From a virus, in the IMG/VR virus record IMGVR_UViG_3300019093_000591, positions 1 to 39,017 of that record: DNA of 39,017 bases, one strand, 5' to 3'. This document shows positions 6,832-37,916 of this stretch, piece after piece. The notes under the pieces are model-generated. The model did no database searches. It worked only from the letters and a program-made list of their open reading frames with translations, and was not told the origin of the DNA. The position numbers and the translations under genes are program-made. Position 1 is the first letter of the stretch, and the number at the start of each line of letters is the position of its first letter.

Positions 6832-7437
6832 TTAGATAGAATATTTGAAAAAGTCTACGTCACGTTCGTGGACTTTTTTTATGAGTTTAATACTGTGATC
6901 ATTAAAGTATTTTTTAAATTCCCAATGATCATACCCGCTGATACAGGGCAGAGAAATATCACAATTTAAATATTCTTTTACCTGTTTGAAGTCTTGTTCT
7001 AGACTTTCTGCTCGACATACATAATCAACCCACTCGTCATTTACATGAACAAAGTCTATTTGATTTGTAAAACGTGTGAACCATCTAGGAAAGTTAAACT
7101 CTACTTCTGGGTTGCAGTAGTCCTCAACCCATTCATTAATAGGTTTTAAATCTAACAAGGTTTGATTGTTCCAATCTAACCAATAGCCTTCAGTGCTTAC
7201 TTTACGGTACAGACTATACACACGTTGCCAAGGATTACGAACAACAGTCATAGTCTTGGCATAGGGATAATACTCTTTCACCATGCCTAAGTGCGGGTGA
7301 TCGATCATCCACGGATCTGTATCATTAACATTAAAATTAGGTTTAAGCCAATCTGCAATAATTTTTTTCATGGCCATACCTGTACGGGGAATATGTACAT
7401 AAGCCAATTGAGGAGATGGAATATAAAAAGTTCCCAT
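6832..7437 (-). CDS. Sulfotransferase-family protein
   Basis: A 201-residue protein of the Sulfotransfer_2-like group, which use PAPS to sulfate sugars or other acceptors. HIPRTGMAMKK (15-25) matches the 5'-phosphosulfate loop (usually HIPKTGGTS) and VVRNPWQRVYSLY (65-77) matches the 3'-phosphate site. A C-terminal YFNDHSIKLIKKVHERDVDFF block is also typical. The start ATG 7437 coincides with the predicted start from a late promoter on the - strand, so the mRNA may be leaderless. It converges on the fibre gene with one base between stop codons. Substrate unknown; a surface glycan is plausible. Confidence 0.8.
   Translation of the reverse strand: MGTFYIPSPQLAYVHIPRTGMAMKKIIADWLKPNFNVNDTDPWMIDHPHLGMVKEYYPYAKTMTVVRNPWQRVYSLYRKVSTEGYWLDWNNQTLLDLKPINEWVEDYCNPEVEFNFPRWFTRFTNQIDFVHVNDEWVDYVCRAESLEQDFKQVKEYLNCDISLPCISGYDHWEFKKYFNDHSIKLIKKVHERDVDFFKYSI
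6848..6880 (+). terminator. Two-way intrinsic terminator inside the sulfotransferase gene
   Basis: Positions 6848-6859 pair with 6867-6878 (12 bp, one G-U) around a 7-nt loop, with T7 at 6874-6880 on the + strand and T5 on the - strand. It terminates the fibre gene that stops at 6830 and lies within the last codons (KKVHERDVDFF) of the opposing sulfotransferase gene. Confidence 0.8.
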
Positions 7438-7442
7438 GAAGA

Positions 7443-7450
7443 TATTTACA
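7443..7450 (-). promoter_or_regulatory. Late-promoter motif TGTAAATA for the sulfotransferase
   Basis: On the - strand TGTAAATA ends at 7443; with T4 late spacing the transcript starts at 7437, exactly the A of the ATG. The TAAATA core is shared by the motifs ahead of the other island blocks. Confidence 0.5.
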
Positions 7451-7452
7451 CA

Positions 7453-7460
7453 TATAAATA
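7453..7460 (+). promoter_or_regulatory. T4-type late promoter, exact TATAAATA
   Basis: A perfect TATAAATA. The predicted start near 7466 leaves about four bases before the ATG at 7470 and no ribosome binding site. Confidence 0.72.
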
Positions 7461-7469
7461 GGGTTACGT

Positions 7470-8213
7470 ATGAATATTGGAATATATGGAAATAGTATCT
7501 GCGAGTGGAACAGAGTTCAAGAGTTTTCTTTTATTAAAAAACTCAAAGATTTTTATTCGGCGAATATAATACATACAGGAACTACTATGTGTTCCGAAGA
7601 ACGTATATTAGTTGATCTCAAAAAAACCAAAAATATAGATTTAGCAATAATTTTTCATGCTAAAGCCAGATGGATCTTTATTCCGTCATGGCATAGAGAT
7701 ATTGAATCATTAGATAGATATACCATAATTAAAAAAATACATAGTTTTCCAGGGTATAGTGAAGAACAAACTTTTGATAATACAGAAGATGAAAGTAGTA
7801 TTTTAGCTGTGAAACGATGGTATCAAGATTATATAGGCGAAACAAAATTTAAAGACTCTAAACTTTCTCCAGAAGAACTGCTAGAAGCATTATTACTGAA
7901 TAAGAAATACATGTTTAGTGTTGAATTACAACGTAATAGATATTGCGGAGCATTAGTTCAAATAGATCAATATTTAAATTTTAAACAAATCCCAGTTGTC
8001 CACTGTTTATCAGAAAAAGAATTTCACCCAGAATGGTTTAATTTTAGTAGTGGGGTAGTTAATCACAATATTACAGAAATTAAAAAAATTCCTAAATACA
8101 AAGCTGAACACAACTTATCCTGCAACGGTGTAAATGAGGACGGTAATGAGTTAATGTTTAACCAACTTATTCCATTAATCGATGCGGCCCGTAGTAAAGT
8201 GGTTATACGCTAA
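7470..8213 (+). CDS. SGNH-hydrolase-like protein
   Basis: A 247-residue protein beginning MNIGIYGNSICEW, where GNS stands in the place of the GDS motif of SGNH hydrolases; the usual aspartate is replaced but the serine is kept. The C-terminal part (HNLSCNGVNEDGNELM) aligns with the DxxH end region only loosely, so catalysis is doubtful. Codon use is much more AT-rich than in the genes before 5600. Expressed from an exact late promoter with almost no leader. Its last nine codons and stop lie inside a tRNA-Gly-like gene (8184-8257), so its tail is tRNA-derived. Confidence 0.65.
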   Translation: MNIGIYGNSICEWNRVQEFSFIKKLKDFYSANIIHTGTTMCSEERILVDLKKTKNIDLAIIFHAKARWIFIPSWHRDIESLDRYTIIKKIHSFPGYSEEQTFDNTEDESSILAVKRWYQDYIGETKFKDSKLSPEELLEALLLNKKYMFSVELQRNRYCGALVQIDQYLNFKQIPVVHCLSEKEFHPEWFNFSSGVVNHNITEIKKIPKYKAEHNLSCNGVNEDGNELMFNQLIPLIDAARSKVVIR

Positions 8214-8257
8214 CTGTCCAAGTTAGAGACGGAGGTTCGAATCCCCCGGCCGCTCCA
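8184..8257 (+). tRNA. tRNA-Gly-like gene, probably abnormal (anticodon UCC, U33 changed)
   Basis: It begins GCGG, ends CCGCTCCA with T discriminator as in glycine tRNAs, and has a T-loop TTCGAAT. The anticodon stem CTAAC/GTTAG is perfect, leaving loop TGTCCAA with anticodon TCC but G instead of the near-invariant U33. The acceptor pairs for six bases only, the T-stem has an A-C mismatch, and the D-arm is out of register by about one base. It may be decayed or unusual. It overlaps the 3' end of the gene at 7470 (30 nt) and of the desaturase on the other strand (35 nt). A normal tRNA-Gly(UCC) is present at 1770. Confidence 0.65.
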
Positions 8258-9020
8258 CTTTAATTAATTTAATAATCCAGCCCATTGGATCTAATTCCCA
8301 CCATTTTTCTCCCGCGTACCATCTGCCTGGATGTGCGTGATGATTGTTGTGCCATCCTTCACCTAGTGCAATGATTGCCGCAATCCAACTATTAGTGCTA
8401 CGATCTGCAGTTTCAAAATTTCTATATCCGTGTTTGTGTCCTAACACATTAACTAATCCGATAACCTGAACTGTTAATGTCGCAGGTAACGCATATACAA
8501 ATAAAAACAACAGTGGATTGATTGCCATTAAAATTAAACCTGTGATAATAATAATTTTAAAATAGTGATTAAAGATAAACTTGTGCAAAGGACTTCGTAC
8601 AAGGTCTCTGACATATTTTAATGAGATAGTTTCTACTTGCCAGTCATATCCAACCCATACTTTAAATGCAGCCCAGTAATTAAACTTGCCGTCTACATAG
8701 GGCGAGTGCGGATCGCCAGCGTTGTCTGAGTTAGCATGATGCATTCTGTGTAAGCCTACCCAAGCAATAGTAGGACCTATTGTAGAATATACACTGACCC
8801 AAACAAGTATATTTTCTAACCATGGCCAGGTTTTAAAACTTCGGTGTGTTAACATTCTGTGCAAGGTTATAATAGAACTAATATGTCCAATTACCAACCA
8901 AGATGCCAATGTAACCCACAGCCAATAAAATTCATTAGTATAAAACACGTAACTGACAGCAACGATACTAGCAATGAAATTGAATAACTGTAATAGTCTT
9001 ACTTTGAGATTATAGCTCAT
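8223..9020 (-). CDS. Membrane fatty-acid desaturase (delta-9 acyl-CoA/acyl-lipid type)
   Basis: A 265-residue integral membrane protein with three histidine boxes: HRMLTH (54-59), HRMHH (91-95) and HNNHH (224-228), the di-iron ligands of delta-9 desaturases, which insert a cis double bond in an acyl chain. Hydrophobic segments lie at about 10-50, 70-90 and 155-195. ATG 9020 is chosen over the open frame from 9044 because it overlaps the upstream stop as ATGA. The last codons are antisense to the T-arm of the tRNA-Gly-like gene. It would act in the host inner membrane and may change phospholipid fluidity. Confidence 0.87.
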   Translation of the reverse strand: MSYNLKVRLLQLFNFIASIVAVSYVFYTNEFYWLWVTLASWLVIGHISSIITLHRMLTHRSFKTWPWLENILVWVSVYSTIGPTIAWVGLHRMHHANSDNAGDPHSPYVDGKFNYWAAFKVWVGYDWQVETISLKYVRDLVRSPLHKFIFNHYFKIIIITGLILMAINPLLFLFVYALPATLTVQVIGLVNVLGHKHGYRNFETADRSTNSWIAAIIALGEGWHNNHHAHPGRWYAGEKWWELDPMGWIIKLIKVERPGDSNLRL

Positions 9021-9631
9021 GTGCCCTCTGGCATTTCTGCCCACTCCTTGTTATTAATAGTTGTAGGACTCCATTCAGCAAATTTGCCAGAAACTGTTTC
9101 ATGGTATACAAAGTTTTGCCAACATTTTTGTACAGGCCACGGACAAGTTTGAGCATACCCTTGTCCTAGTGTCCATTTACCATTGGACGCAATATCCATA
9201 TGTTTAACCCATGTGTCCCACCAACGTTTGCCGCCACGTGGTCTGTTCTGCATGGTAATTAAATATACATCATATGTGTTTACTTTTTCTAGTGCATTAA
9301 TCAGACTACAAGTGACTCTAAAACCATCTGTCATGTCAGTGTGTTTCATACGAAATTCTGGAAATGTGTATAGACGATTGATCTGTTTAGCTACATTTTT
9401 TGGATAACGGCCGTCGTTAAACACGCCGCCCATTACCATAGGTTTGCCTGTAGACTTTTGATAGACCACCCCATACCCGGTATGTTGCTCTACCACCAGA
9501 TTTTCTCTAGTGTAGTTATAACGCAACCAGTTATCTTCTTGTAAACAAATGTCGCGAACACATTCAAATTCAGGTGTTGAATTATAATAAATTTCTATGT
9601 GTGTATCGGTCAAATCATATCTATTTTGCAT
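9017..9631 (-). CDS. Uncharacterised protein, possibly GNAT-like acyltransferase
   Basis: A 204-residue protein I cannot firmly assign. The block GYGVVYQKSTGKPMVMGGVFNDGRYPKN (52-79) and the following RLYTFPEFR read like the central strands of an N-acetyltransferase fold, but the acetyl-CoA loop (Q/RxxGxG/A) is not clear. Trp-rich C-terminal part (WWDTWVKH, WPVQKCWQNF). It is coupled to the desaturase by an ATGA overlap, so a role in lipid acylation is conceivable. The start lies two bases after the predicted late start, so the mRNA would be nearly leaderless. Confidence 0.6.
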   Translation of the reverse strand: MQNRYDLTDTHIEIYYNSTPEFECVRDICLQEDNWLRYNYTRENLVVEQHTGYGVVYQKSTGKPMVMGGVFNDGRYPKNVAKQINRLYTFPEFRMKHTDMTDGFRVTCSLINALEKVNTYDVYLITMQNRPRGGKRWWDTWVKHMDIASNGKWTLGQGYAQTCPWPVQKCWQNFVYHETVSGKFAEWSPTTINNKEWAEMPEGT

Positions 9632-9638: not shown

Positions 9639-9652
9639 TATTTACTTAAATA
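9639..9652. promoter_or_regulatory. Divergent late-promoter motifs AGTAAATA (-) and CTTAAATA (+)
   Basis: In the 39 bp between divergent genes, AGTAAATA on the - strand (9646-9639) predicts a start at 9633 for the ATG at 9631, and CTTAAATA on the + strand (9645-9652) predicts a start at 9658 for the ATG at 9671. They share the TAAATA core and overlap by two bases. Confidence 0.5.
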
Positions 9653-9670: not shown

Positions 9671-10303
9671 ATGTTAGACACCGCAGTTACAAAACTTAAT
9701 TTTACTATAAAATTAGACAGTTTAAAAGATTACTATCAAACACTATCAACTAATTACGATCACCTGTGTTGGAAGTGGGATAGATACGGCCATGAGATCA
9801 CCGATGAATGGTATAACAGAATTATTAGCAACGGGCCGGGATGCATATTACCCTACGGTTGGGCAATACAAAGCAACTTGGTAGATTTAACGATTCCTTG
9901 CCCGCCTTATAATATTAGCACACATGAACGCTGTGAATATCGTAACACAGAATTAGCATTTGGTTTGGTTACTAAATTACAAAATCTTATACCCTATGCA
10001 TATCGTTGGAGTTTAGTTGTCCAGCCGCCTACCGGTAAAGTTTCAAGACACGTGGATCAAGGTGACGAATACACAGCACACATTCCAATTTACGATACCC
10101 CTGGGGCTATTTTTAAGTTTTGGGATCATGAAGGCAATCGCAAAGATGTTGGAATGATTGCAGATGGAACAGTGTATTTGGTCGACACTATAATAGAACA
10201 CCAAACTGAAAATTATAGCGATACAGATCGCATAGGATTAGTGTTCCGTTTTAAAAGAGATGACTTACCAAAGTTATTAGAACTCACGGGCGAGATTGAA
10301 TGA
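9671..10303 (+). CDS. 2OG-Fe(II) oxygenase, aspartyl/asparaginyl beta-hydroxylase-like
   Basis: A 210-residue protein with a double-stranded beta-helix fold suggested by H127-x-D129 (in SRHVDQGD), H177 (IIEHQTEN) and R187 (TDRIGLVFRF), the iron triad plus 2-oxoglutarate arginine with the spacing of AspH-like hydroxylases. An N-terminal region rich in Trp and Tyr precedes the core. It opens a + strand run of coupled genes; overlap with the next gene is 4 nt. Substrate unknown. Confidence 0.78.
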   Translation: MLDTAVTKLNFTIKLDSLKDYYQTLSTNYDHLCWKWDRYGHEITDEWYNRIISNGPGCILPYGWAIQSNLVDLTIPCPPYNISTHERCEYRNTELAFGLVTKLQNLIPYAYRWSLVVQPPTGKVSRHVDQGDEYTAHIPIYDTPGAIFKFWDHEGNRKDVGMIADGTVYLVDTIIEHQTENYSDTDRIGLVFRFKRDDLPKLLELTGEIE

Positions 10304-10938
10304 CTGTAATTTACACACCTATAGATATTGAGTTCGACATTCCCGATGAGCAAACAGTTATCGATTGGTTTCATGCCAACAAAATTACTGACACAGACTA
10401 CTGGGAATACGAGGAAGGTAGACACGAATGGTGTTACGTTGCCTTACGAAAAGATCCCAGCAATTGGCACACATACGATGCATGGCTAGACTGGTCTAAA
10501 GAACGCAAGCCTATAGACGATGCTGGATTAGTATTTCATCCAGGGTTTGAAGAAGCGTTTCCCGGACTGGCAAAGTGTGTGCGTGAGTTGCCTTTTGATC
10601 AAATTGGCACTAGCGGATTTATTATGCAAATAGGAACAATCCCTCCGCATAACGATGCTACATATGAGATGACTGAACCTAGACGTTACATCATTTATGT
10701 AACTGATCCTGCATATAATACTTTTCATTTTGTGCATAACGGTAAAAAGATTTGGCCACAAATAGATCTCAAATATCGCTGCTTTGCATTTAATAATACT
10801 GCTGTGGAACATGCTGCTGATCCTACTAACAGAACTAAAATATTGTTAAGCACAGTCGGGATAATGAATAAAGCCAAGCATGAAGCACTACTACAGCGTA
10901 GCGTAGAAAAGTTTGCAGACAAGGTTATTAGAATATGA
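10300..10938 (+). CDS. 2OG-Fe(II) oxygenase, AspH-like
   Basis: A 212-residue protein with H117-x-D119 (IPPHNDATYEM), H171 (TAVEHAADP) and R178 (NRTKILLSTVG). These fit the AspH-like Fe(II)/2-oxoglutarate site. Sequence similarity to the preceding gene is only in the core, so they are distant paralogues. ATGA overlap upstream and a 4-nt overlap with the SGNH-like gene downstream show translational coupling. Confidence 0.77.
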   Translation: MTVIYTPIDIEFDIPDEQTVIDWFHANKITDTDYWEYEEGRHEWCYVALRKDPSNWHTYDAWLDWSKERKPIDDAGLVFHPGFEEAFPGLAKCVRELPFDQIGTSGFIMQIGTIPPHNDATYEMTEPRRYIIYVTDPAYNTFHFVHNGKKIWPQIDLKYRCFAFNNTAVEHAADPTNRTKILLSTVGIMNKAKHEALLQRSVEKFADKVIRI

Positions 10939-11588
10939 TCTGCGATTGGGTCGATAAAGTAAATGCCATTATTAATTATAAGGCCGGTATACAAATACGA
11001 AAATGGAAGGATCATGGATTGTCAGTTAACCCTAACAATGCTATTTGGTTTTTTGGATGTAGTCACGTATTTGGCACAGGTCTTGAACACTACGAAACTG
11101 CGCCGTACCAGCTTAGTGAACTATTAAAGCATACTGTAATAAACTACGGAAGACCCGGAATAGGACCTATGACAATTAAAACTCAGATAGAAGAACTGTT
11201 AAAAGACTATACCCCCACAGCAATTATTATTGCTTGGCCAAGTTTTGATAGGTGGCAATCCGGATCAGTACTATGGATTCCGCAGTGCTTGACAGATGTT
11301 AAGATGCACAATGATAATTTTGGTTCTAAGAAGTTATGGCCTAAGCAATGGAATCAATACAAAGAATTAGTTATGACTGGCAAACTTCGCCAAACAAATT
11401 TAAAAGCTGTACAAGATACTCACATGTTAGTTAACGGTATTCCGTATGTAGAATTTAGTTATACTGAACAAGAATTTACAACTCCGGTGTATCCTTTTAA
11501 AGACTTAGCAACGGATAACAGTCATCCTGGATTTAACACACAGCATGAAATTGCTAAATGGGTGGCGGAGCAGTTACATGAAATTTAA
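10935..11588 (+). CDS. SGNH-hydrolase-like protein
   Basis: A 217-residue protein with WFFGCSHVFGTG (38-49), in which GCS replaces the GDS of SGNH hydrolases, and a C-terminal DNSHPG (D194, H197), the DxxH dyad. YGRPGIGP (about 71-78) may be the block containing the conserved Gly. The phage SGNH-like proteins in this window share this GCS and DxxHPG pattern. It may act on ester groups, for example acyl or acetyl modifications made by neighbouring enzymes. Confidence 0.72.
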   Translation: MICDWVDKVNAIINYKAGIQIRKWKDHGLSVNPNNAIWFFGCSHVFGTGLEHYETAPYQLSELLKHTVINYGRPGIGPMTIKTQIEELLKDYTPTAIIIAWPSFDRWQSGSVLWIPQCLTDVKMHNDNFGSKKLWPKQWNQYKELVMTGKLRQTNLKAVQDTHMLVNGIPYVEFSYTEQEFTTPVYPFKDLATDNSHPGFNTQHEIAKWVAEQLHEI

Positions 11589-12267
11589 TTATTATTATAA
11601 TCAAGTTCCGGGTCACGGCCAACAACGAAATAATTTAATCTATACAAGCCTAATGTCAGAGGATCAAAAAACATTTGTACAATGGTATTATAATGATACA
11701 GAATATCACCGAGGACAGAACGAAGTAGTGGATCCTAGTAAGATGGAGGAAAAGTGGCTACGTGAAGTAAACTACCTTACACAAATGCGTAACAAATATC
11801 CAGATCTAATTCCTAAAATTATTAATATTGATTTAGATGCTAGAAAACTTTATCTAGAAGTAGATGGCGTAGACTTCTGGAACCGTGCAGACTGTGATGT
11901 TGCAAACTATGTTAAAGTCGTACCGGACTGGCAAGAGCAAATGCTTAACATTATACAAACATACAAAGATCTAGGATGGTACAAATATAGTATGCATCCT
12001 AGCAGCTATTTTGTAGTTGATGGCAAACTAAAAAGCATAAACTACTTTTTTACATACAGAGAAAATGAAGGACCTATCAGCATTGCAGATCATGCTAGTC
12101 ATATATACAGTACTAGGCAAGACATCATGCGCAAGCAAATAGAACAAATGGGACTGAGTTGGGATAAACCAGAATCATTAAAGACATTGCAGATGCTGTG
12201 TTTTGAAAGTTTTAGAACAAACTACCCATCAGACTTTATTGAGAAGGCAAAAGCAATTTATGATTAA
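11578..12267 (+). CDS. Kinase-like fold protein without the catalytic aspartate (tentative)
   Basis: A 229-residue protein. The block LYLEVDGVDFW, then WQEQMLNIIQTYKDLGWYKYSMHPSSYFVVDGKLKSINYFF, recalls aminoglycoside-phosphotransferase or kinase folds (hinge, HxxN-like loop, DFG-like strand), but the HGD catalytic motif reads HPSS and the DFG place reads NYF. If the match is right, it is a pseudokinase. ATG 11578 is chosen over the frame open from 11545: GGAG lies 9 nt upstream and it overlaps the previous stop by 11 nt. It overlaps the next gene by 8 nt. Confidence 0.5.
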   Translation: MKFNYYYNQVPGHGQQRNNLIYTSLMSEDQKTFVQWYYNDTEYHRGQNEVVDPSKMEEKWLREVNYLTQMRNKYPDLIPKIINIDLDARKLYLEVDGVDFWNRADCDVANYVKVVPDWQEQMLNIIQTYKDLGWYKYSMHPSSYFVVDGKLKSINYFFTYRENEGPISIADHASHIYSTRQDIMRKQIEQMGLSWDKPESLKTLQMLCFESFRTNYPSDFIEKAKAIYD

Positions 12268-14238: not shown

Positions 14239-14243
14239 AAAAA

Positions 14244-22711: not shown

Positions 22712-22723
22712 AGGTCCGGGATG

Positions 22724-31056: not shown

Positions 31057-31453
31057 ACGTATAAGCAAGCCCACGGACTTGTTGGGCGGATTGAGTGTAT
31101 GTCCGTTTGCCAAGGGAGCAGATTATTCTGTACACAAAACAGACGGCAGTGATATTGACCCGCCCCCATGGGATTTTGAATTAATAATATATGTATTGCC
31201 CGAGCATTACACAACTGACGAAGTTATAAACATTGCTAACAAATATAATAATCTGTATCCCGACATGGTGTTTTTGCCAGACCCCAAGGATAGAGAAACA
31301 TTTATAAATGGTGTTCAAACAAACAATAGTGTACATAATATAATATTATGTCAGTGGCGTGATAATTTAGAAAAAGCCCGTAGTAAATTAAAAAATACAA
31401 CTTACTATAGTCATTGGGAGGATGAATATTTAAAGGAGATTTTAGCATCATGA
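31037..31453 (+). CDS. DUF1415-like protein
   Basis: A 138-residue protein starting at TTG 31037 (AAGGAAAG is 6-13 nt upstream); it overlaps the halogenase gene by 20 nt. FQEWIERISKPTDLLGGLSVCPFAKG resembles the N-terminus of DUF1415 proteins (...LCPFA...). Function unknown. It overlaps the amidinotransferase gene by 4 nt, in one operon with it and the halogenase. Confidence 0.55.
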   Translation: MFQEWIERISKPTDLLGGLSVCPFAKGADYSVHKTDGSDIDPPPWDFELIIYVLPEHYTTDEVINIANKYNNLYPDMVFLPDPKDRETFINGVQTNNSVHNIILCQWRDNLEKARSKLKNTTYYSHWEDEYLKEILAS

Positions 31454-32529
31454 GCATTTGGACTAACTGGGATCCGTTAGAAGAAGTCATAGTTGGAAAT
31501 TGCTACGCCAGCGTTCCTAAAGAATGGGGTCTATCAGGTATGGCACGCATTATGTTAGATCAAATTCTAAAAGAGACCAAAGAAGATCTTGATAATTTAG
31601 AAAAAATATTACAAGGGCTTAAGGTAAAGGTATATAGACCAACTCCAAATATATTTCCTCGCAAAATAGAAATATTAGATTTTAATGTTGTTAATGCCAC
31701 TAGCCCAATTGTTCCAAGAGATCAGTACTTGGCATACGGCAATACTATCTATCAAACATATACAAGCATGCCAGATCGATATCTTGATGCTTATAACTAC
31801 TATAGCATATTCAACGAATTATTTCAAAATGGGTATAATTGGATTAGCCAACCGCCTCCTGTGATTAAAAACTTTGAAGGAAATGTTAAATGGTATGTTG
31901 AAGGTCCTAAAATTTATTCAGAGGATTTCAAAGATAAAATTCTTTGGCATACCGCTACAATGTTCAAATGTGGAGATGCATTAATTACTAATAATGCCGG
32001 GCCAGGGTCACAGTTAGGATTAGAATGGATGCGTCGAAATGTTGATGCTAAAATAATTAACAATGACGGAACCAAGGTTAATAATTGGGGGCATATTGAT
32101 CATGGATTTTATATGATAGATGATAATACTGTCATATGTATGAATGAATCTTGGGTTCCTATGTGTTTGCGTAACAAGCACATTATAGAACTAGAAGGAA
32201 AGTTTGAAGAATTTGACTATCAATCATTTATTAAACAAACTCACAATATAAAAAATCAAACATCATTAGAATGGCTAGAGCAATGGTTAGGTGAATGGAA
32301 GGGCTACGCACAGGATGTAGCGTTTGAAACCAATGTTCTTGTTGTGGATTCGTGTAATGTTATTTTTTCTACCGAACAACCTGAAGTGTTTGCATTACTT
32401 AACACTCTTGGAATTAATTGTCACGTTTGTAAAATTAGACATGGAATATTTTGGGAAGCAGGCATACATTGTTTAACTTTAGATATAAAGCGAAAAGGAT
32501 TTAATCGTACGGTAATTTCAGCATCATAA
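31450..32529 (+). CDS. Amidinotransferase-family protein
   Basis: A 359-residue protein of the guanidino-group modifying superfamily (glycine/inosamine amidinotransferase, PF02274-like). NWDPLEEVIVG opens the fold, PRD (89-91) and GHIDHGF (H215, H218) give substrate and catalytic residues, and C341 in AGIHCLTLDIKRKG is the catalytic cysteine. These enzymes move the amidino group of arginine to an amine, giving guanidino compounds. Position between the halogenase and two radical SAM genes suggests a small-molecule or peptide-tailoring role. Confidence 0.82.
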   Translation: MSIWTNWDPLEEVIVGNCYASVPKEWGLSGMARIMLDQILKETKEDLDNLEKILQGLKVKVYRPTPNIFPRKIEILDFNVVNATSPIVPRDQYLAYGNTIYQTYTSMPDRYLDAYNYYSIFNELFQNGYNWISQPPPVIKNFEGNVKWYVEGPKIYSEDFKDKILWHTATMFKCGDALITNNAGPGSQLGLEWMRRNVDAKIINNDGTKVNNWGHIDHGFYMIDDNTVICMNESWVPMCLRNKHIIELEGKFEEFDYQSFIKQTHNIKNQTSLEWLEQWLGEWKGYAQDVAFETNVLVVDSCNVIFSTEQPEVFALLNTLGINCHVCKIRHGIFWEAGIHCLTLDIKRKGFNRTVISAS

Positions 32530-32536: not shown

Positions 32537-34453
32537 GTGAAAAACGTATATCTAATACAAGCCGAAATCACATCCGGTCCTATAAATGAACACTACTTGC
32601 CATTTAGTGTTGGGTGTATCTGGTCATATGCTAATCAATTCGAAGACATAAAATCAAATTTCAAGTTATGTGATATAATTTGGCAAAGAGATCGGCAGGC
32701 AAACGTATTAGATAAAATTATAGATCCGGATATTGTGGGATTTAGTTGCTATGTATGGAATCATAATTGGAATCTAACACTTGCTAAAAAAATAAAAAAC
32801 AAATATCCAAACTGTTTAATTGTTTTTGGCGGGCCAAGTGTTAATGAAGCATGGACTAATTACGAATTCATTGACGTGGCAATGTTTGGGGAAGGTGAAG
32901 TTGCCTGGGCAGAACTTTTAAGATTATATCAAGATAACAACTTCATACCTCGATACTGGAACAATCCTAGACAAAACGACATTGCTAATTTTCCAAGTCC
33001 GTATACTACTGGATTCTTTGATAAAATTATAGAAGAGAATCCAGATGTAAGTTGGTTCATGATGTTGGAGACCAATAGAGGATGTCCGTATCATTGTACA
33101 TTCTGCGGCTGGGGCGCAGACTATTTAAACAAACTTAAAAACTTTAACTTACATAGAGTTGAAGAAGAAATTGCGTGGGCAATAACACATAACATACACT
33201 GGATGTTTATCATCGACGCAAACTCAGGAATCATGAAAGAACGTGATGTAGAAATTGCATGGATGATTCGAAGAGCTATCGAAACCCCGGGGAGTAAAAT
33301 TAGACGTGTTACATTTAACCATGCTAAAAATTTAAACGAACATTGTTTTGAAATGGAAAAGATTATTCAAGACTGGACGTATGGTTTAGAGATAGCTATA
33401 CAAAGCATGCATCAACCTACTCTTACTGCCGCTAAACGAATTAATATGGGTATGAATAATTTAGAACGTGCTTATGCATTGTGTCGTAAACACGGCATTC
33501 GATACTATACGGAACTAGTACTTGGGTTACCTGAAGAAACTAAAGAAACATATATTAACGGACTAATACAACTATTAGAATTGGGTCAGCATGACAGCGT
33601 AAAAACCTATCCTTGTACTGTTATACCTAACAGTGAAATGGATACTCCCGAATATCAAGAACGATATGGAATTAAACTTATCTATCCTAGAGACATGTAC
33701 CGCAGTCCGGAAGAACGTATTTGGGATGATGAAGATAACAGTTATGAATCTATTGCTATGGTGTCATCTACAGCATCGGCATCGAGTCAAGATCTAGCAG
33801 ACTGTTTAAGCTATAGTTGGATGATGAGTCAATTTCATTATGCAGGCATTACACAATTAATATCACGCTACTTGTATCATATTAAAGATATAAACTATCG
33901 TGTATACTACGATAAATTTTATCAAGTATTAAAAACTGATCCGATTGGAGGGCCACTGTTAAACAATGTTGAGGAAATATTGCAAAACTATATGGCACAC
34001 GGCGAAGTTCCAAAAGATGATAAGTGGGGGAATGTAGTAGCTCTTACACTACCTGAAAGTTACGGTAGCGATGATATCTATAGAAATAAAGATCATTTTA
34101 TAAAATTAGCAGTACAGGCAGCAGAAGAACTTTCAGAACTAGATCCTAGTATTATTAAATTACAGTACGCATTTACAAAAACTGAACTTCAGGCGTACCC
34201 TTACACTATTGAGTCGAGTATCGATATTGATCGTTGGGAATTCAATGAGTGTGTTTATGAAATAACTGATCGTAAGGCAGTTAGCCATATGCACGATCAA
34301 ATGTATCAAAAATACTTGTTAAAAACAGATATGAAGAATATAACAAATCCGTATGTTGAAAAATATATTGACGATGTTTATAAGGGACAAAAACTTGCTA
34401 CAATTCCAATTACATTCATTCCAACTACTGTGCTAGAAGGGCGAGTAATGTAA
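32537..34453 (+). CDS. B12-binding-type radical SAM enzyme
   Basis: A 638-residue protein starting at GTG. An N-terminal Rossmann-like cobalamin-binding region (residues 1-135: DPDIVGFSCYVW, FGGPSVNE, GEGEVAWAELL) is followed by the radical SAM core with CPYHCTFC (C183, C187, C190). No DxHxxG motif is seen, so cobalamin may bind base-on-free or weakly. Enzymes of this class methylate unreactive carbons or rearrange rings. A C-terminal 250 residues have no assigned domain. TAATG junction with the next gene. Confidence 0.83.
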   Translation: MKNVYLIQAEITSGPINEHYLPFSVGCIWSYANQFEDIKSNFKLCDIIWQRDRQANVLDKIIDPDIVGFSCYVWNHNWNLTLAKKIKNKYPNCLIVFGGPSVNEAWTNYEFIDVAMFGEGEVAWAELLRLYQDNNFIPRYWNNPRQNDIANFPSPYTTGFFDKIIEENPDVSWFMMLETNRGCPYHCTFCGWGADYLNKLKNFNLHRVEEEIAWAITHNIHWMFIIDANSGIMKERDVEIAWMIRRAIETPGSKIRRVTFNHAKNLNEHCFEMEKIIQDWTYGLEIAIQSMHQPTLTAAKRINMGMNNLERAYALCRKHGIRYYTELVLGLPEETKETYINGLIQLLELGQHDSVKTYPCTVIPNSEMDTPEYQERYGIKLIYPRDMYRSPEERIWDDEDNSYESIAMVSSTASASSQDLADCLSYSWMMSQFHYAGITQLISRYLYHIKDINYRVYYDKFYQVLKTDPIGGPLLNNVEEILQNYMAHGEVPKDDKWGNVVALTLPESYGSDDIYRNKDHFIKLAVQAAEELSELDPSIIKLQYAFTKTELQAYPYTIESSIDIDRWEFNECVYEITDRKAVSHMHDQMYQKYLLKTDMKNITNPYVEKYIDDVYKGQKLATIPITFIPTTVLEGRVM

Positions 34454-35616
34454 TGCTGTTAGGATTCAACTCATCTAATATAGATCGTCTGGTAAGTGCT
34501 ATTCCTGGTGGTACACATTTAGATCCAACTGTAAGTCTCTGTCATCAGTGCCATAGGCATATTCCTGCTTGGCGATATCATCAAGACAATCAAGTGTTTA
34601 TTTCCAAAGCGTGTCCTATACACGGTGTTAGCCATCACATGATTGAAACTGATTATGAGTTTTACGCTAACCTGTATTATACTCAGAATAATCCAGAGTT
34701 TAATTTTAACGGTGGAGTTCTTATTGAAGGCAGTGACCGTTGTAACTTAGAATGCCCGCATTGTTATCATCTCCCTGAAAACGATACTAAAGATCCTAGT
34801 ATAGAAGAATTACTTAACCAAGTAAAAGCGATGCCTATAGGTAATGACGGAGTACATCGCATAATATTAGCGGGTGCAGAAAGTACTTTAAGGAAAGATT
34901 TTCCAGAACTGATTACCGAAATACGTAATTTAGATCCTGCAATGAATGTTAGTGTGATGACTAACGGCTTACGATTTAATGATAGTGAGTTTAGTCACCA
35001 ATGTGTTGAGGCAGGGCTTACTGGAGTTAACATTGGACTTAACCATCCTAGTTACATCGATCATGAAACTGTTAGACGTAAACAAATTAGTGCAATTAAT
35101 AACATGCACAAAGAAAATGTTAAGATAGGTTACATAAGTTATACCATGGTTGACTTCGGCGAGTTAGATTATATTTTAACTGAAATTACTAGCAACCCTT
35201 GGACCCCAAAGAATTTTCGCATTAGATGCGGAGCAGAGATTGGCCGCAATGCTAGTTCAGAACAGCCATTTGTTAGCAATCTATATAAACGTGTTGAACA
35301 ATGGTGTAAAGAAAACAGAAAGCAATTTAATCGAATTATCCAAGCAGACAACAATATATATCATGTAATGGTAAACATAGATGATAAAATTGTTAGGTTA
35401 ATAGCATGGTGTGATGAAACTAATATAGACATGGAAGAATTGCGTAGTGGGCCTTGGTGTAACTTTGTGCCAGACGGCATAACAAACTTCCTACATCAGA
35501 TTATTCGTAGAGATGTATTTAAGAATCAGAATATTCCATTGCCTGATACCCCACCCTCACGATATCTGTTTTCTCGCAATCCCGACAAATCAAAATTGGA
35601 TTTATTAAATTTATGA
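34453..35616 (+). CDS. Radical SAM enzyme with N-terminal zinc-like site (Tes/MJ0619-like)
   Basis: A 387-residue protein. SLCHQCHRHIPA with CPIHG (C30, C33, C54, H57) forms an N-terminal metal site like that of tetraether-lipid synthase-type and MJ0619-type radical SAM enzymes; CNLECPHC (C97, C101, C104) is the radical cluster. C-terminal cysteines (WCDET, PWCNF) may add a cluster. Families of this kind join or modify lipids or cofactors; the substrate here is unknown. Overlaps the next gene by 4 nt. Confidence 0.8.
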   Translation: MLLGFNSSNIDRLVSAIPGGTHLDPTVSLCHQCHRHIPAWRYHQDNQVFISKACPIHGVSHHMIETDYEFYANLYYTQNNPEFNFNGGVLIEGSDRCNLECPHCYHLPENDTKDPSIEELLNQVKAMPIGNDGVHRIILAGAESTLRKDFPELITEIRNLDPAMNVSVMTNGLRFNDSEFSHQCVEAGLTGVNIGLNHPSYIDHETVRRKQISAINNMHKENVKIGYISYTMVDFGELDYILTEITSNPWTPKNFRIRCGAEIGRNASSEQPFVSNLYKRVEQWCKENRKQFNRIIQADNNIYHVMVNIDDKIVRLIAWCDETNIDMEELRSGPWCNFVPDGITNFLHQIIRRDVFKNQNIPLPDTPPSRYLFSRNPDKSKLDLLNL

Positions 35617-36113
35617 AAATAGCAATAACAGGTGGAACTTCGTCAGTAGGACAAGGGATAGCAAAGGCCTATATTAACCGCGGGCACACCGTTATTGATA
35701 TTTCACGCTCGCTAGGTTATAATTTTAACGATACTAACTCTATAGTAGAAGCTATACTGTCCTGTGATGTGTTTGTAAATTGTTTGTCATTGTCAGACTT
35801 GCAAGTCGTGTTATTAGAACAAGTATGGAACAAATGGTTAGATACTAACAAAGAAATTATTAATATTAGCACTTGTATTACATTGCCAGCATTTGAAACT
35901 AAAAATGTCGAATATAAAAAACAAAAGATATTACTTGAAACTAAACATTGGGAATTAATATCTAAGAATATAATTAATCCTAGAATGTATTTGATAAAGT
36001 TAGGCGTTGGAGATGATAATACATCATGGAATGCCTGCTGTGAATATGTAGTCGACTCTATAGAACTGGCAAAGCCGGATGTATTTTTATTTGAAATGTC
36101 GGTGTTCAAATGA
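35613..36113 (+). CDS. Short-chain dehydrogenase-like protein
   Basis: A 166-residue Rossmann protein. GGTSSVGQGIAKAY (7-20) binds NAD(P), a Ser in NISTC (about 84-88) and YKKQK (YxxxK, about 99-103) match the SDR catalytic set. It is much shorter than the usual 250 residues, so the substrate lobe is reduced. Coupled on both sides by ATGA overlaps. Confidence 0.72.
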   Translation: MKIAITGGTSSVGQGIAKAYINRGHTVIDISRSLGYNFNDTNSIVEAILSCDVFVNCLSLSDLQVVLLEQVWNKWLDTNKEIINISTCITLPAFETKNVEYKKQKILLETKHWELISKNIINPRMYLIKLGVGDDNTSWNACCEYVVDSIELAKPDVFLFEMSVFK

Positions 36114-36727
36114 ACCTAACTATCAATTTACTGCGTCCTGGACTATACGGATTATCGGTATCGCTAGACCACAACTATGCTACTGTTATTAATGCGTTAG
36201 CATCTGAAGATTGGCAAGCACACGCTGATAGAAAAGATGAGGCAGGGTTAGCCGGAGATCCGTATGCACAACGTTCTGGACTACTAAATCCAAAAAGCCA
36301 AGTTTTAAAAGATATCATGAAATTTGTTAATTCAAATGCTGTAAAAGAACAACTCGTAAATTTTGTATACGATACACAAGGCGACTATATAAGTAGCCTA
36401 TGGGAAGGATGGTGCCGAGAACAGATGCTCCAGTATACATTTTGGGGTTGCATGTTTAATAGAGATCAACCCGGATTTCATATACCAATACACGTAGATA
36501 CACGATTACAAATTGCTACTGCTATGATATACTTTGTTGAAAACGATGATCCAACGCAATCAACTGTATATTACACTAGTAATAAGTTTGAAGATCCGTT
36601 GAGAATTAGCAACGAGTTTGGCAACGGTGTATTACATATAAACGACCATACTGCGTGGCATGAAGGTTACAATAAATCTAATGTCATACGGTATAGTCTA
36701 ATATGCGGACTACTGTTAAAAGTATAA
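36110..36727 (+). CDS. 2OG-Fe(II) oxygenase-like protein
   Basis: A 205-residue protein with FHIPIHVDTR (H128, D130), NDHTAWHEG (H184, or H180) and R194 (VIRYSLICG), with an H-x-D to His to Arg order of 2OG oxygenases. It is distinct from the YIGNF set. It lies 22 nt before the aminotransferase gene. Confidence 0.74.
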   Translation: MNLTINLLRPGLYGLSVSLDHNYATVINALASEDWQAHADRKDEAGLAGDPYAQRSGLLNPKSQVLKDIMKFVNSNAVKEQLVNFVYDTQGDYISSLWEGWCREQMLQYTFWGCMFNRDQPGFHIPIHVDTRLQIATAMIYFVENDDPTQSTVYYTSNKFEDPLRISNEFGNGVLHINDHTAWHEGYNKSNVIRYSLICGLLLKV

Positions 36728-36749
36728 AAATAGAAAACTGGGATTTTAA

Positions 36750-37916
36750 ATGGAATTAAATTTTAAAACTACTGAGGAAATAGTCACAGAAGTTTATAAA
36801 ACTGAAAAGTATTGGATACACACCAATCACGGTAAGTTATTAGATACGATCTGTGGTAACATGGCATTTATCTACGGATACGATAATGAATTTATTTTAA
36901 ATCGTATGTATGAACAACAAAAACAACTAGCATACCTTAATTTTAAACATAACGAAGTTTGTAAGACTAACGATAAATTGGTAGGATTACTTTGCAAGGA
37001 AGGCAACTTCAAAGGTGTAGGCTATGCTGTGAGTGGAACAGATGGAGTGGAATGTGCAGTTGCTATGAATAATCATTATTGGAAGATTGTTGATCCCACG
37101 AAAACAACCATTGTTTCATTTAGTCCTGGATACCACGGAGCAACTTATCTATGTCGCGCACTAAGAGGCGAAGAACACATGTCCAATGTTAAAGTAATTA
37201 GTGCGCCTGAATGGCAGCAAGTAGGAGATCGCGGAGAATACGAAAAGGTGTCTTTTCAAAATGTCAAACAGTTGCTAGAAACTGATAAATCAGTGGGGGC
37301 AATAATCATGGAATCAATACCTTGGGCTACTGGTATTCGCCCCTGGAGCCTTGGGTGGTGGAGAGACATACGAAGTTTATGTACAGAACACAATGTCAAT
37401 TTTATTATAGACGATGTAATGGGAGGTATGGGTAAACTAGGATACCGTCTAAGTCAAGAGCGTTATGGCATCCAGCCAGATATAGTAGCTTTAGGCAAAG
37501 CACTTACAGGCGGGTTCAGCCCGTTAAGTTGTGCTTGTGCAGTAGAACGTATATCAGATGTAATCAAAGATAAATGGGACTATGGTCATACATGGCAACC
37601 AAACATGGCAGGCGTTGGAGCAGCACTAGCAGTGTGGGAAATGTTTGATACTAAAAAGATTTTAGATATCGAGGATCAACTTACAATGTTAGGTGCAAAA
37701 TTAACAGCAATGGGATTAGTTAGAGATTTTGTAGTTATTGGTTTGATTTTTTCTTATAAACTTACTACACCTATATCCGCAGATACTTGCGTAATGCACG
37801 GATTAACCGGCGGGCCCGATGTTAAGTACAGTATCGGCGGGTGTGCTCCGGCAATCGCAGATGCCGAATACTTTAGAGAATTTGAAGCTAGACTAATTAA
37901 TGCTCTAACTGAGTAA
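36750..37916 (+). CDS. Class III aminotransferase (PLP)
   Basis: A 388-residue PLP enzyme of the ornithine/DAPA/beta-alanine aminotransferase class. VSGTDGVECA (94-103) and PGYHGAT (126-132) bind PLP, IIDDVMGGMGKLG (219-231) supplies the aspartate, and ALGKALTGGFSPLS (247-260) contains the Schiff-base lysine K250. Nearly full length. With the amidinotransferase it could process amino acid or guanidino compounds. Last gene of the + strand island block. Confidence 0.87.
   Translation: MELNFKTTEEIVTEVYKTEKYWIHTNHGKLLDTICGNMAFIYGYDNEFILNRMYEQQKQLAYLNFKHNEVCKTNDKLVGLLCKEGNFKGVGYAVSGTDGVECAVAMNNHYWKIVDPTKTTIVSFSPGYHGATYLCRALRGEEHMSNVKVISAPEWQQVGDRGEYEKVSFQNVKQLLETDKSVGAIIMESIPWATGIRPWSLGWWRDIRSLCTEHNVNFIIDDVMGGMGKLGYRLSQERYGIQPDIVALGKALTGGFSPLSCACAVERISDVIKDKWDYGHTWQPNMAGVGAALAVWEMFDTKKILDIEDQLTMLGAKLTAMGLVRDFVVIGLIFSYKLTTPISADTCVMHGLTGGPDVKYSIGGCAPAIADAEYFREFEARLINALTE

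What the first reader, a model, noticed from the sequence alone, without database searches (positions are those of the whole stretch)
6832..37916. Phage accessory island dense in 2OG oxygenases and radical SAM enzymes
Between virion genes at 5664-6830 and the partial one at 38702 lie about 31 kb holding twelve 2OG-oxygenase-like genes (13 with 1852), eight radical SAM genes, a halogenase, an amidinotransferase, two PLP enzymes, a QueC-like ATPase, a methyltransferase, a sulfotransferase, a desaturase and an SDR. Most are coupled by 4-20 nt overlaps. The mix is that of a tailoring pathway for peptides or small molecules, yet no precursor peptide or carrier-protein gene is visible. It may modify virion or host proteins, a surface glycan or lipids. 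The motifs are seen; a shared pathway is inferred.
Basis: partly seen in the sequence, partly recalled or inferred. Interest (0 to 1): 0.88.

Follow-up and report, generated by a model that had tools for sequence, protein, structure and literature searches.

The report
Phage tail-fibre-side island of radical enzymes
A group of uncultured, probably giant, T4-related phages carries beside a tail-fibre gene a tightly packed block of about 38 mostly enzyme genes with late-type promoter sequences, which probably builds or tailors a chemical decoration for the virus particle or the cell surface; its core genes recur in dozens of related phage sequences and nobody has shown what it makes.

Summary
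Window 6832-37916 has eight radical SAM (rSAM) genes, twelve genes with 2OG-oxygenase metal-binding motifs, a halogenase-like flavoenzyme, an amidinotransferase and more; 27 of 38 gene junctions overlap. Three reader calls lack profile support (SDR, methyltransferase, first PLP enzyme). It is not a chance pile: in 18 related viral records each of twelve core genes (six rSAM, three 2OG, kinase-fold protein, PP-loop ATPase, PLP-like) is found in 10-18; rSAM genes cluster within 30 kb in all six long records tested; a compact relative lies in a Bdellovibrionia contig. New: the island adjoins a tail-fibre gene, and its operon heads carry the T4-type late-promoter core TAAATA (74 of 111 leaders; random 2.8%), including all five divergent gaps of the window on both strands. 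Best reading: a late-expressed modular pathway for a decoration of virion adhesin or cell surface (0.42). Rivals: diffusible metabolite; direct protein modification. No precursor peptide or carrier protein was found. The kind is known (pelagimyophage host-recognition cluster, Campylobacter CP220 modules, Aeromonas phage 332-Vera); this core and promoter layout are a new variant. The substrate is unknown.

The parts
1852..2427 (+). 2OG oxygenase (2OG_a), left flank, outside the island
   Evidence: PF13759 2.7e-6; RBH in 5 of 18 relatives
3667..3885 (+). translation initiation factor IF-1, flank marker
   Evidence: PF01176 3.9e-18; 11 of 18
3896..4456 (+). PTP/DSP phosphatase-like, flank marker
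   Evidence: PF22785 4.7e-7; 6 of 18
4930..5520 (+). calcineurin-like phosphoesterase (MPE), flank marker
   Evidence: PF00149 4.5e-6; 8 of 18
5598..6830 (+). tail-fibre/adhesin with Mtd_N N-terminus; likely start at 5664
   Evidence: PF18454 2.5e-10; last 40 aa 67.5% like a baseplate wedge subunit of Melnitz phages
6832..7437 (-). sulfotransferase-like
   Evidence: PHROG 3347 6.3e-5; Pfam 0.021
7470..8213 (+). uncharacterised, possibly SGNH-like (weak)
   Evidence: no Pfam hit; poor fit
8223..9044 (-). fatty acid desaturase
   Evidence: PF00487 6.8e-21
9017..9631 (-). unknown, paired with the desaturase
   Evidence: RBH in the same 5 of 18 records as the desaturase
9671..10303 (+). 2OG_b
   Evidence: PF05118 0.0011; HxD..H in 91% of 11
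10300..10938 (+). 2OG_c
   Evidence: H117/D119/H171 in 6 of 6; no Pfam hit
10935..11588 (+). SGNH-hydrolase-like (GCS, D..H)
   Evidence: no Pfam hit
11572..12267 (+). protein-kinase-fold protein, catalytic loop degenerate (my reading); core gene
   Evidence: profile vs PDB, TTK kinase 6.2e-6; 14 of 18
12260..13057 (+). 2OG_d, core gene
   Evidence: HRD..H..R invariant in 13 of 13; AF2 pLDDT 72.6, leading Foldseek rows of the 2OG superfamily, best E 1.0e-3
13031..13576 (-). 2OG_e by motif, core gene
   Evidence: H105/D107/H162 in 17 of 17; against: Alliinase_C 1.2e-4, under cut-off
13573..14235 (-). 2OG_f, core gene
   Evidence: H167/D169/H211 in 14 of 14, numbered on the longer ORF to 14496
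14279..14914 (+). 2OG_g, Asp/Asn beta-hydroxylase family
   Evidence: PF05118 1.1e-12
14889..15758 (+). PLP-enzyme-like PLP1, core gene (motif only)
   Evidence: Lys191 in SLSKGLG in 10 of 10; no Pfam or PDB hit
15745..16485 (+). PP-loop ATPase, C-terminal Cys cluster like QueC (likeness recalled), core gene
   Evidence: Pfam ATP_bind_3 0.0083, QueC 0.058
16466..17734 (+). N-twitch radical SAM TWI1, core gene
   Evidence: NF033640 6.8e-102, over cut-off
17727..18656 (+). radical SAM rSAM_b, core gene
   Evidence: PF04055 4.2e-12
18613..19254 (-). SGNH-hydrolase-like
   Evidence: G73, S75, D222, H225 conserved in 7; Pfam GDSL 0.12
19238..20218 (-). radical SAM rSAM_c, core gene
   Evidence: PF04055 2.2e-12
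20215..21627 (-). N-twitch radical SAM TWI2, core gene
   Evidence: NF033640 7.1e-114; 128 viral relatives, best 80 kept
21620..22738 (-). radical SAM/SPASM-like rSAM_e, core gene
   Evidence: PF04055 1.3e-6, just under cut-off; over it
22752..23879 (+). GT-A/nucleotidyltransferase-type fold in the first half; second half only weakly methyltransferase-like
   Evidence: AF2 pLDDT 88.9; residues 1-221: guanylyltransferase 7p97 and PBCV-1 glycosyltransferase 2p73 both Z 10.8, LH3 Z 10.5; 2uyq methyltransferase row E 0.011
23906..24517 (-). core protein of unknown family
   Evidence: 17 of 18; no methyltransferase hit
24508..25482 (-). radical SAM rSAM_f, core gene; border gene of the island in many relatives
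   Evidence: PF04055 1.8e-12; 18 of 18
25539..26093 (+). 2OG_h, first of five paralogous 2OG genes
   Evidence: H110/D112/H162 in 8; aligned
26077..26856 (+). SGNH-hydrolase-like
   Evidence: G12, S14, H239 in 5
26849..27313 (+). endolysin-like C-terminal region
   Evidence: PHROG 181 4.1e-12
27310..27894 (+). 2OG_i
   Evidence: PF05118 6.8e-5
27891..28391 (+). 2OG_j
   Evidence: PF05118 0.0068
28437..28976 (+). 2OG_k
   Evidence: aligned with paralogs, HxD..H kept
28973..29476 (+). 2OG_l
   Evidence: H96/D98/H148/R158 invariant in 18 of 18; 15 of 18 relatives
29473..31056 (+). flavin-dependent halogenase-like
   Evidence: PF04820 1.8e-89; RebH 9.7e-57; WxWxIP altered in 9 of 10
31037..31453 (+). 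CPFA protein, fused to the halogenase-like protein in one relative (L134)
31450..32529 (+). amidinotransferase
   Evidence: 1bwd 1.9e-60, HsvA, AGAT, SxtG
32537..34453 (+). B12-binding radical SAM, KedN5-like
   Evidence: B12-binding 4e-10; NF033712 1.1e-46, below cut-off
34453..35616 (+). radical SAM with HMPTM zinc ribbon, Tes-like
   Evidence: PF23545 4.7e-13; 7tol 6.2e-18
35613..36113 (+). short Rossmann/SDR-like protein (unconfirmed)
   Evidence: Pfam 0.026
36110..36727 (+). 2OG_m
   Evidence: H128/D130/H184 in 5; Pfam 0.013
36750..37916 (+). class-III aminotransferase
   Evidence: PF00202 7.2e-43
37940..38299 (-). S-adenosylmethionine decarboxylase
   Evidence: PF02675 7.4e-12
7443..7460 (.). 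divergent T4-type late promoter cores (TAAATA both strands)
9639..9652 (.). divergent TAAATA pair
14244..14274 (.). divergent TAAATA pair
22726..22745 (.). divergent TAAATA pair; the + site lies inside the 5' end of gene 21620
25499..25520 (.). divergent TAAATA pair

Best explanation
The island is one modular biosynthetic locus of a T4-related, probably jumbo, phage lineage. Shown: a core (six rSAM, three 2OG enzymes, a kinase-fold protein, a PP-loop ATPase, a PLP-like enzyme) recurs together in related records, next to a tail-fibre gene where the flank is seen in most, and its mini-operons carry T4-type late promoter cores. Inferred: the enzymes act late in infection, when virions are built. 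The rSAM and PP-loop/PLP enzymes make or modify a small amino-acid- or sugar-like unit; 2OG oxygenases hydroxylate it at several positions; variable cargo (halogenase-like enzyme, amidinotransferase, B12-rSAM, sulfotransferase, nucleotide-sugar-fold protein, SGNH enzymes) adds phage-specific groups. The product is a decoration attached to the virion adhesin or to the cell-surface glycan, altering host recognition or excluding rivals.
For: Core genes each in 10-18 of 18 records (islands). rSAM matches cluster: uniform random placement reaches the observed 30-kb maximum in 0, 1, 111, 1, 23 and 32 of 20,000 trials for six long records. Order MPE - fibre - island in the window and 6 of 8 relatives with MPE (5 of 7 if G005/G007 count once); the fibre is a sequence match in 3 and by its N-terminal motif, by eye, in the other 3. 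TAAATA is the most enriched hexamer ahead of operon leaders, 184 vs 11.7 expected; island leaders 74 of 111, divergent junctions 40 of 58 on both strands vs 0.6% of random 110-nt windows. Nucleotide-sugar-type fold of 22752. Sulfotransferase hit named galactose-3-O-sulfotransferase. Relatives' islands add DegT aminotransferase, carbamoyltransferase, hexapeptide transferase. Compact cluster in a 917-kb Bdellovibrionia contig with RpoD and DnaG close by. Precedent: eight rSAM genes inside the structural cluster with five tail fibres of Aeromonas phage 332-Vera (PMC12390700 passages); pelagimyophage host-recognition cluster with rSAM cassettes (PMC7029224 passages).
Against: No substrate is shown. 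The window has no nucleotide-sugar biosynthesis hit and only one GT-like protein, whose fold match is tied with nucleotidyltransferases. No glycosyltransferase was seen in the Bdellovibrionia cluster (10 of 17 ORFs scanned singly). PF05118 enzymes can act on proteins, lipids or small molecules (recalled). 92 of 279 leaders outside islands carry TAAATA too, one NrdA-like gene has it at 50 nt, several structural-looking genes lack it, and so do the two capsid genes checked. The G005 fibre had no PHROG hit. Proximity to a fibre may reflect an insertion hot spot. The neighbour tally of cellular N-twitch genes is only mildly glycan-rich (PF00535 in 8 of 113) and had no control. Four relatives (G001, G002, G033, G047) lack large parts of the core in the stretch held.
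Confidence: 0.42

Rival explanations
1. The pathway makes a diffusible secondary metabolite (oxidised, guanidinylated, hydroxylated amino-acid derivative) in the infected cell, acting as toxin, signal or chelator.
For: Amidinotransferase profile nearest to inosamine-phosphate amidinotransferase, HsvA, AGAT and SxtG; B12-rSAM nearest to KedN5; halogenase-like enzyme. Iyer et al. propose this or capsule decoration for the S-SSM6a halogenase/2OG cluster (PMC7824862 passages).
Against: No carrier-protein, NRPS or PKS hit among 50 window proteins scanned; late-promoter layout and fibre linkage are not predicted by it; a lysing cell gains little from a secreted product (argument).
Confidence: 0.23
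2. The enzymes directly modify a ribosomally made protein, most likely a phage fibre or a host protein, as in RiPP maturation without a short precursor.
For: N-twitch/SPASM-type rSAM and Asp/Asn beta-hydroxylase-type enzymes commonly act on peptides and proteins (recalled); LH3 and collagen galactosyltransferase among the fold rows of 22752; fibre next door.
Against: No conserved short precursor in islands; in the rows shown no RiPP-maturase model is over its cut-off (best 25 shown per protein); amidinotransferase and aminotransferase relatives act on small molecules (recalled).
Confidence: 0.21
3. A collection of independent auxiliary genes gathered at a recombination hot spot, without a shared pathway.
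For: Cargo varies strongly between records; 67 singleton clusters among non-window-like genes in and just beside islands.
Against: Core recurrence, clustering, compact cellular cluster, HAL-CPFA fusion.
Confidence: 0.08
4. DNA or nucleotide hypermodification (QueC-like PP-loop, rSAM, PLP, 2OG).
For: Enzyme types overlap with phage DNA-hypermodification pathways (recalled); PP-loop protein has a QueC-like Cys cluster (likeness recalled).
Against: No DNA-modification family above noise among 50 window proteins; late promoters fit poorly with modification during replication.
Confidence: 0.06

Closest known systems
Host recognition cluster (HRC) of pelagimyophages (PMC7029224, passages and section 8) and hyperplastic region of T4-like cyanophages (PMC2984593, passages)
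   Same: Large variable island with tail fibres in T4-related phages; rSAM cassettes and glycosyltransferases in the HRC; beta-hydroxylase core to these phages
   Different: Here a recurring core of six rSAM, several 2OG enzymes, a kinase-fold protein and a PP-loop ATPase; few glycosyltransferases; the VrlC-gp14 position was not established; that paper's freshwater genomes lack radical SAM proteins
rSAM modules of Campylobacter phages CP220/CPt10 (PMC2853527, passages and section 5 part 1)
   Same: 11-12 rSAM proteins per phage, clusters with a putative glycine amidinotransferase, proteins noted as nucleotide-diphospho-sugar-transferase domain in the same run, called an interchangeable module; our amidinotransferase and rSAM_e match at 25.8% and 24.8% identity; four Campylobacter phage records also match our halogenase query
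   Different: The words oxygenase and halogenase do not occur in that paper's text; no match to our two N-twitch proteins there better than a 26% piece of TWI1 at 6e-4
Aeromonas jumbo phage 332-Vera (PMC12390700, passages)
   Same: Eight rSAM genes inside the structural cluster with five tail fibres
   Different: phiKZ-type (Chimallinviridae); sequence not compared here
Second gene cluster of jumbo cyanophage S-SSM6a (PMC7824862, passages)
   Same: Halogenase plus several 2OG oxygenases plus sugar/amino-acid enzymes
   Different: Core there is carbamoyltransferases and a HemK-like methylase; radical SAM not mentioned in the passage
Bdellovibrionia cluster, locus L196 (JAUICP010000002.1)
   Same: Three proteins best matching TWI1 (26-31%), one rSAM_e (32%), amidinotransferase (32%), PLP1 (32%) and two PF05118 2OG genes together
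   Different: About 10.5 kb, no halogenase, desaturase or fibre seen; no paper looked for
Flavin-dependent halogenases RebH and viral VirX1
   Same: RebH and VirX1 found in the PDB search; 28.8-32.7% identity in the listed cyanophage rows; Lys72 and Glu352 invariant in 10 (that they are catalytic is recalled)
   Different: WxWxIP is WxFKIG in 8 of 10 and WxFKID in 1; intact in 1

Membership tests
T4-like hypervariable host-recognition cluster | lies in a T4-related phage genome | tested here: inconclusive
   Gp23 MCP in 2 of 21 related records (E about 1e-80; the others may be fragments), nearest named phages to the MCP of G037 are Phosso, PA5oct-like, GAP32/CBB; the window record shows no capsid gene
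T4-like hypervariable host-recognition cluster | adjoins or contains tail-fibre genes | tested here: met
   Mtd_N protein at 5598-6830; 6 of 8 relatives with MPE, 3 by sequence match and 3 by N-terminal motif by eye
T4-like hypervariable host-recognition cluster | variable content between conserved flanks | tested here: met
T4-like hypervariable host-recognition cluster | position between VrlC and gp14 | tested here: inconclusive
   PHROG scan of ten proteins from related records named neither; flanks only sampled
N-twitch radical SAM (NF033640) | score over curated cut-off | tested here: met
   341.5 and 381 bits vs 170 for 16400 and 20215
RiPP biosynthetic cluster | short precursor gene in the cluster | tested here: not met
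   window gaps at most 56 nt; one conserved 45-110 aa ORF family, in 2 of 16 islands; ORFs under 45 aa or overlapping genes not tested
NRPS/PKS cluster | carrier protein or modular synthase | tested here: not met
   no such Pfam hit among 50 window proteins; an AMP-binding protein occurs in a relative
Amidinotransferase (AGAT/StrB-like) | full-length profile match | tested here: met
   1bwd 1.9e-60 over 2-356
Flavin-dependent halogenase | GxGxxG, conserved Lys and Glu | tested here: met
Flavin-dependent halogenase | WxWxIP motif | tested here: not met
   WxFKIG in the window protein; altered in 9 of 10
Phage DNA-hypermodification cluster | modified virion DNA | not testable with these tools
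   needs nucleoside mass spectrometry
2OG oxygenase superfamily (2OG_d) | double-stranded beta-helix fold with HxD..H | tested here: inconclusive
   motif invariant 13 of 13; AF2 pLDDT 72.6, leading Foldseek rows of that superfamily but best E 1.0e-3

The most novel reading that the evidence does not exclude
A phage lineage carries its own dedicated radical-SAM/2OG pathway that chemically rebuilds virion adhesins (or the glycan put on them) with groups outside the normal protein and sugar repertoire, reshuffled from phage to phage, and expresses it from paired T4-type late promoters that start many messages at or next to the start codon (leaderless late mRNAs).
Probability: 0.2. Interest if true: 0.92.

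Novelty: new variant of a known kind. Interest (0 to 1): 0.72.

Why it matters
Clusters of radical SAM genes in phages were called 'highly unusual' in 2010 (PMC2853527) and again in 2025 (PMC12390700); the passages I saw offer guesses (host metabolism, DNA repair) but no tested explanation. This work ties such a cluster to a recurring core, a neighbouring tail fibre, late-type promoter sequences and a compact bacterial counterpart, which turns the question into direct tests: what mass do the fibres carry, and is a product lost when the core is removed? If the decoration reading is right, it would be a new layer of phage-host recognition chemistry and a source of unexplored rSAM, 2OG and halogenase-like enzymes.

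Tried and rejected
Megablast of 6832-31831 against named phages: no match. N-twitch query in named phages: 3 weak records; rSAM_f: 2; 23906: none; B12-rSAM: 2; the halogenase query, by contrast, 80 records. Single-sequence scan of genome contigs: none confirmed; the alignment scan found 83 relatives among 182 candidate stretches, 78 distinct loci kept. L179, L181, L182 and L192 may be phage pieces binned into MAGs (my impression) and were not used as cellular evidence. A Lake Baikal paper links radical SAM proteins of methylotroph viruses with PQQ (PMC7678222 passages); I did not test that link.

PDB profile searches for the PP-loop and PLP1 families gave nothing at the limits used; for 2OG_d one unrelated row at 0.74; for 14279 nothing. 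Sigma-70 and terminator scans of 6500-26000 were at background (84 vs 78.5; 13 vs 11.4), which led to the late-promoter test. TATAAATA itself is rare in the window (1 vs 6.4 expected); TAAATA is the informative core; its reverse complement is second in the list because of the divergent pairs. The capsid genes of L173 and L174 have no TAAATA in the 100 nt upstream. The random control places single points uniformly and so ignores ordinary operon clustering.

Limits: gene calls are mechanical. Reciprocal best hits among paralogous rSAM and 2OG genes can be mis-assigned, and some are under 35% identity. G005, G006 and G007 have islands of identical length (30,309 bp) and equal identities and were counted once but appear separately in the '18 records'. 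The 18 records were chosen by me for size and interest from the 50. Radical SAM was sought in 75 records: 49 of 50 and 25 of 25; all were fetched by halogenase or N-twitch similarity, so this is not a prevalence. The 113 proteins are up to 7 nearest neighbours in 19 of 78 loci.

Literature searches that ran; none of the listed titles described this core. No bioRxiv preprints are held. PMC11561400 and PMC10452541 (passages, and section 13 of the latter) concern phage 2OG and halogenase genes in general.

Full report
WHAT IS THERE. The window is a whole IMG/VR viral record of 39,017 bases, probably a fragment. Its left part has five tRNA genes, IF-1, a PTP-like phosphatase, a phosphoesterase (MPE) and a 2OG oxygenase, then a tail-fibre gene with an Mtd_N start. 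From 6832 to 37916 lies the island of 38 genes as I call them. All eight rSAM genes are matched by PF04055, and CxxxCxxC is present in 110 of 110 orthologs. Of the twelve 2OG genes two pass Pfam's cut-off (14279, 27310), four are sub-threshold and six have no 2OG hit. Their metal-binding triads are conserved across relatives where tested. One of them, 13031, has a sub-threshold alliinase hit instead (1.2e-4). Five (25539, 27310, 27891, 28437, 28973) are paralogs in one run.

Supported: halogenase family, amidinotransferase (1bwd 1.9e-60), class-III aminotransferase, desaturase, sulfotransferase (PHROG), PP-loop ATPase (weak profile, clear motifs). Not supported by profiles: SDR, a methyltransferase at 23906, PLP1. 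Missed: a protein-kinase-fold core protein (that its catalytic loop is degenerate is my reading), a protein whose first half has a GT-A/nucleotidyltransferase-type fold and whose second half is only weakly methyltransferase-like, several SGNH-type genes, an endolysin-like piece at 26849 and S-adenosylmethionine decarboxylase. The halogenase-like protein keeps Lys72 and Glu352 but has WxFKIG in place of WxWxIP, altered in 9 of 10 aligned relatives, so halogenation should not be assumed.

IT IS A CONSERVED LOCUS. A halogenase query confirmed 24 viral loci and an N-twitch query 128, of which 80 were kept. In 18 larger records, reciprocal best hits were found for rSAM_f in 18, 23906 in 17, TWI2 in 17, rSAM_b and rSAM_e in 16, 2OG_l and the Tes-like rSAM in 15, TWI1, rSAM_c, the kinase-fold protein and 2OG_d in 14, 2OG_e in 13, the PP-loop protein in 12, the halogenase in 11, PLP1 and 2OG_f in 10, the amidinotransferase in 9 and the B12-rSAM in 8; flank genes IF-1, MPE, PTP and 2OG_a in 11, 8, 6 and 5. 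Islands measure 12-37 kb as bounded by core genes. PF04055 matches occur in 49 of 50 and 25 of 25 records, up to 21 in one 64-kb record. In six long records 7-10 of 9-11 matches fall within 30 kb; uniform random placement reaches that in 0, 1, 111, 1, 23 and 32 of 20,000 trials.

WHICH PHAGE. Two of 21 related records carry a T4 Gp23 capsid protein. The nearest named phages to that of G037 are jumbo phages: Sinorhizobium phage Phosso (469 kb, 73%), PA5oct-like (69%), and GAP32/CBB-like (68%). One related record is 353 kb long. That the window's phage is of this group is inferred.

WHERE AND WHEN. In the window and in 6 of 8 relatives that show the phosphoesterase gene (G005 and G007 near-identical), the order is phosphoesterase - fibre - island. 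The fibre is a sequence match to the window's in G030, G044 and G049; in G005, G007 and G020 I recognise it by its N-terminal motif, and the G005 protein had no PHROG hit. Upstream of operon leaders in 17 non-redundant records the most enriched hexamer is TAAATA, 184 seen against 11.7 expected. In islands 74 of 111 ATG leaders have it within 80 nt, against 2.8% of random windows and 92 of 279 leaders outside islands; 40 of 58 divergent junctions have it on both strands against 0.6% of random 110-nt windows. In the window all five divergent gaps have the pair, one + site lying just inside a gene end. T4 late promoters are an 8-bp TATA box, with its first base at -13 by my reading of the passage (PMC2988020 passages); the sequence is TATAAATA in T4 and NATAAATA in a cyanophage (PMC2984593 passages). 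Many fibre-like or structural-looking genes carry the motif 18-46 nt upstream; the DNA polymerase and NrdB-like genes seen do not, but an NrdA-like gene has it at 50 nt, and several structural-looking genes and two capsid genes lack it (names by eye except the polymerase). Distances to the start codon are bimodal in islands: 35 of 74 at 4-8 nt and 35 at 16-34 nt; Shine-Dalgarno-like motifs are seen in 21 of 111 island leaders against 130 of 279 outside. With T4 geometry the short class would start at or next to the ATG, that is, leaderless or nearly so. This is inference; no transcript was seen.

NO PRECURSOR, NO CARRIER. The window island is 99.1% coding with a largest gap of 56 nt. Sixteen non-redundant relatives' islands are 96.8-99.9% coding with six gaps of 90 nt or more in all, and one conserved small ORF family (45-110 aa), in two of them. 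This argues against a RiPP with a local precursor; ORFs under 45 aa or inside other genes were not tested.

A CELLULAR COUNTERPART. Locus L196, from a 917-kb Bdellovibrionia contig with RpoD and DnaG genes nearby, has three proteins that best match TWI1, an rSAM_e relative, an amidinotransferase relative, a PLP1 relative, two PF05118 2OG genes and a third, sub-threshold 2OG-like protein within about 10.5 kb. The same list of matches occurs in L198. This links amidinotransferase, PLP1, N-twitch rSAM and 2OG outside phages. In a Paenibacillus isolate a single N-twitch gene sits among what read by eye as acyl-carrier and ketosynthase genes (L202; not profile-tested). Across 113 chosen neighbours in 19 loci, family-2 glycosyltransferase was the commonest Pfam family (8 of 113), with no control.

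HOW IT MOST LIKELY WORKS. Shown: recurring core, fibre neighbour, late-type promoter cores. Inferred: the core makes or opens up a small unit by rSAM chemistry and PP-loop/PLP steps, the 2OG enzymes hydroxylate it, and variable cargo adds oxidation, amidino, methyl, sulfo and perhaps glycosyl groups. Variable cargo on a constant core resembles O-antigen-type diversification (analogy). I commit to a surface decoration, on the virion adhesin or the host glycan, at 0.42; I cannot separate these two.

COMPARISON WITH THE KNOWN. It looks like the host-recognition cluster of pelagimyophages (PMC7029224, passages and section 8) and is the same sort of thing as the CP220 modules (PMC2853527, passages and section 5 part 1) and the eight rSAM genes in the structural and fibre cluster of 332-Vera (PMC12390700, passages). 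Pseudomonas phage pPa_SNUABM_DT01 has six rSAM genes at gp057-066 (PMC8541153, passage), and Vibrio phage K566 has four annotated in the 29 kb fetched, which also hold a PagP gene. Iyer et al. predicted a halogenated metabolite or capsule decoration for a cyanophage halogenase/2OG cluster (PMC7824862, passages). Strict HRC membership was not established (VrlC-gp14 position unknown). The recurring rSAM/2OG/kinase-fold/PP-loop core, the paired late-promoter cores and the cellular cluster were not described in any listing or passage I saw.

VERDICT. Real, conserved and unexplained; a new variant of a known kind. Interest 0.72, higher if the decoration is shown.

Noticed in passing
window 7443 and 9639 (-), 14244 (-); islands of 17 records: TAAATA ends 4-8 nt before the ATG in 35 of 74 motif-bearing island leaders, separate from a second class at 16-34 nt; with T4 late-promoter geometry this predicts leaderless or near-leaderless late mRNAs.
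   Followed up: partly
L134:7805-9778 (-): Halogenase-like protein fused to the small CPFA protein that is a separate gene (31037-31453) in the window, suggesting that the two act together.
   Followed up: partly
L029:8937-10001 (+): AMP-binding enzyme (PF00501 4.4e-18) directly upstream of the halogenase-like gene in a relative with 21 rSAM matches (record G015).
   Followed up: partly
L064:5818-6741 (+): Carbamoyltransferase (PF02543 2.4e-33) inside the island of the 353-kb relative.
   Followed up: partly
window 3667-3885: Phage-encoded translation initiation factor IF-1, a flank gene found in 11 of 18 relatives (55-97% identity).
   Followed up: partly
window 5598-6830: Last 40 aa of the fibre protein are 67.5% identical to a baseplate wedge subunit of four Methylophilales (Melnitz) phages, a hint at virion location and host group.
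   Followed up: no
window 38536-38733: A 65-aa basic protein 94-95% identical in three relatives; function not tested.
   Followed up: no
window 8184-8257: ARAGORN tRNA-Gly prediction overlapping the ends of two island genes, besides five tRNAs at the left end.
   Followed up: no
window 13031-13576: Sub-threshold Alliinase_C match (1.2e-4, residues 6-81) in a protein that otherwise carries a fully conserved HxD..H triad.
   Followed up: no
G005 about 95.7-105.5 kb, G044 about 123.5-135 kb: A block shared by eye, reading as CHASE2-like and secreted lipoprotein-like proteins; possibly the curli-type genes mentioned for pelagimyophages. Not profile-tested.
   Followed up: no
L113:1927-15174 (-) and L164:6196-19842 (-): Giant proteins of 4416 and 4549 aa in two relatives within about 45 kb of the island, by eye adhesin-like.
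   Followed up: no
L257 (Vibrio phage K566 150844-179509): Four annotated radical SAM genes in a stretch that also holds a PagP lipid A acylation gene, a possible tractable model.
   Followed up: no
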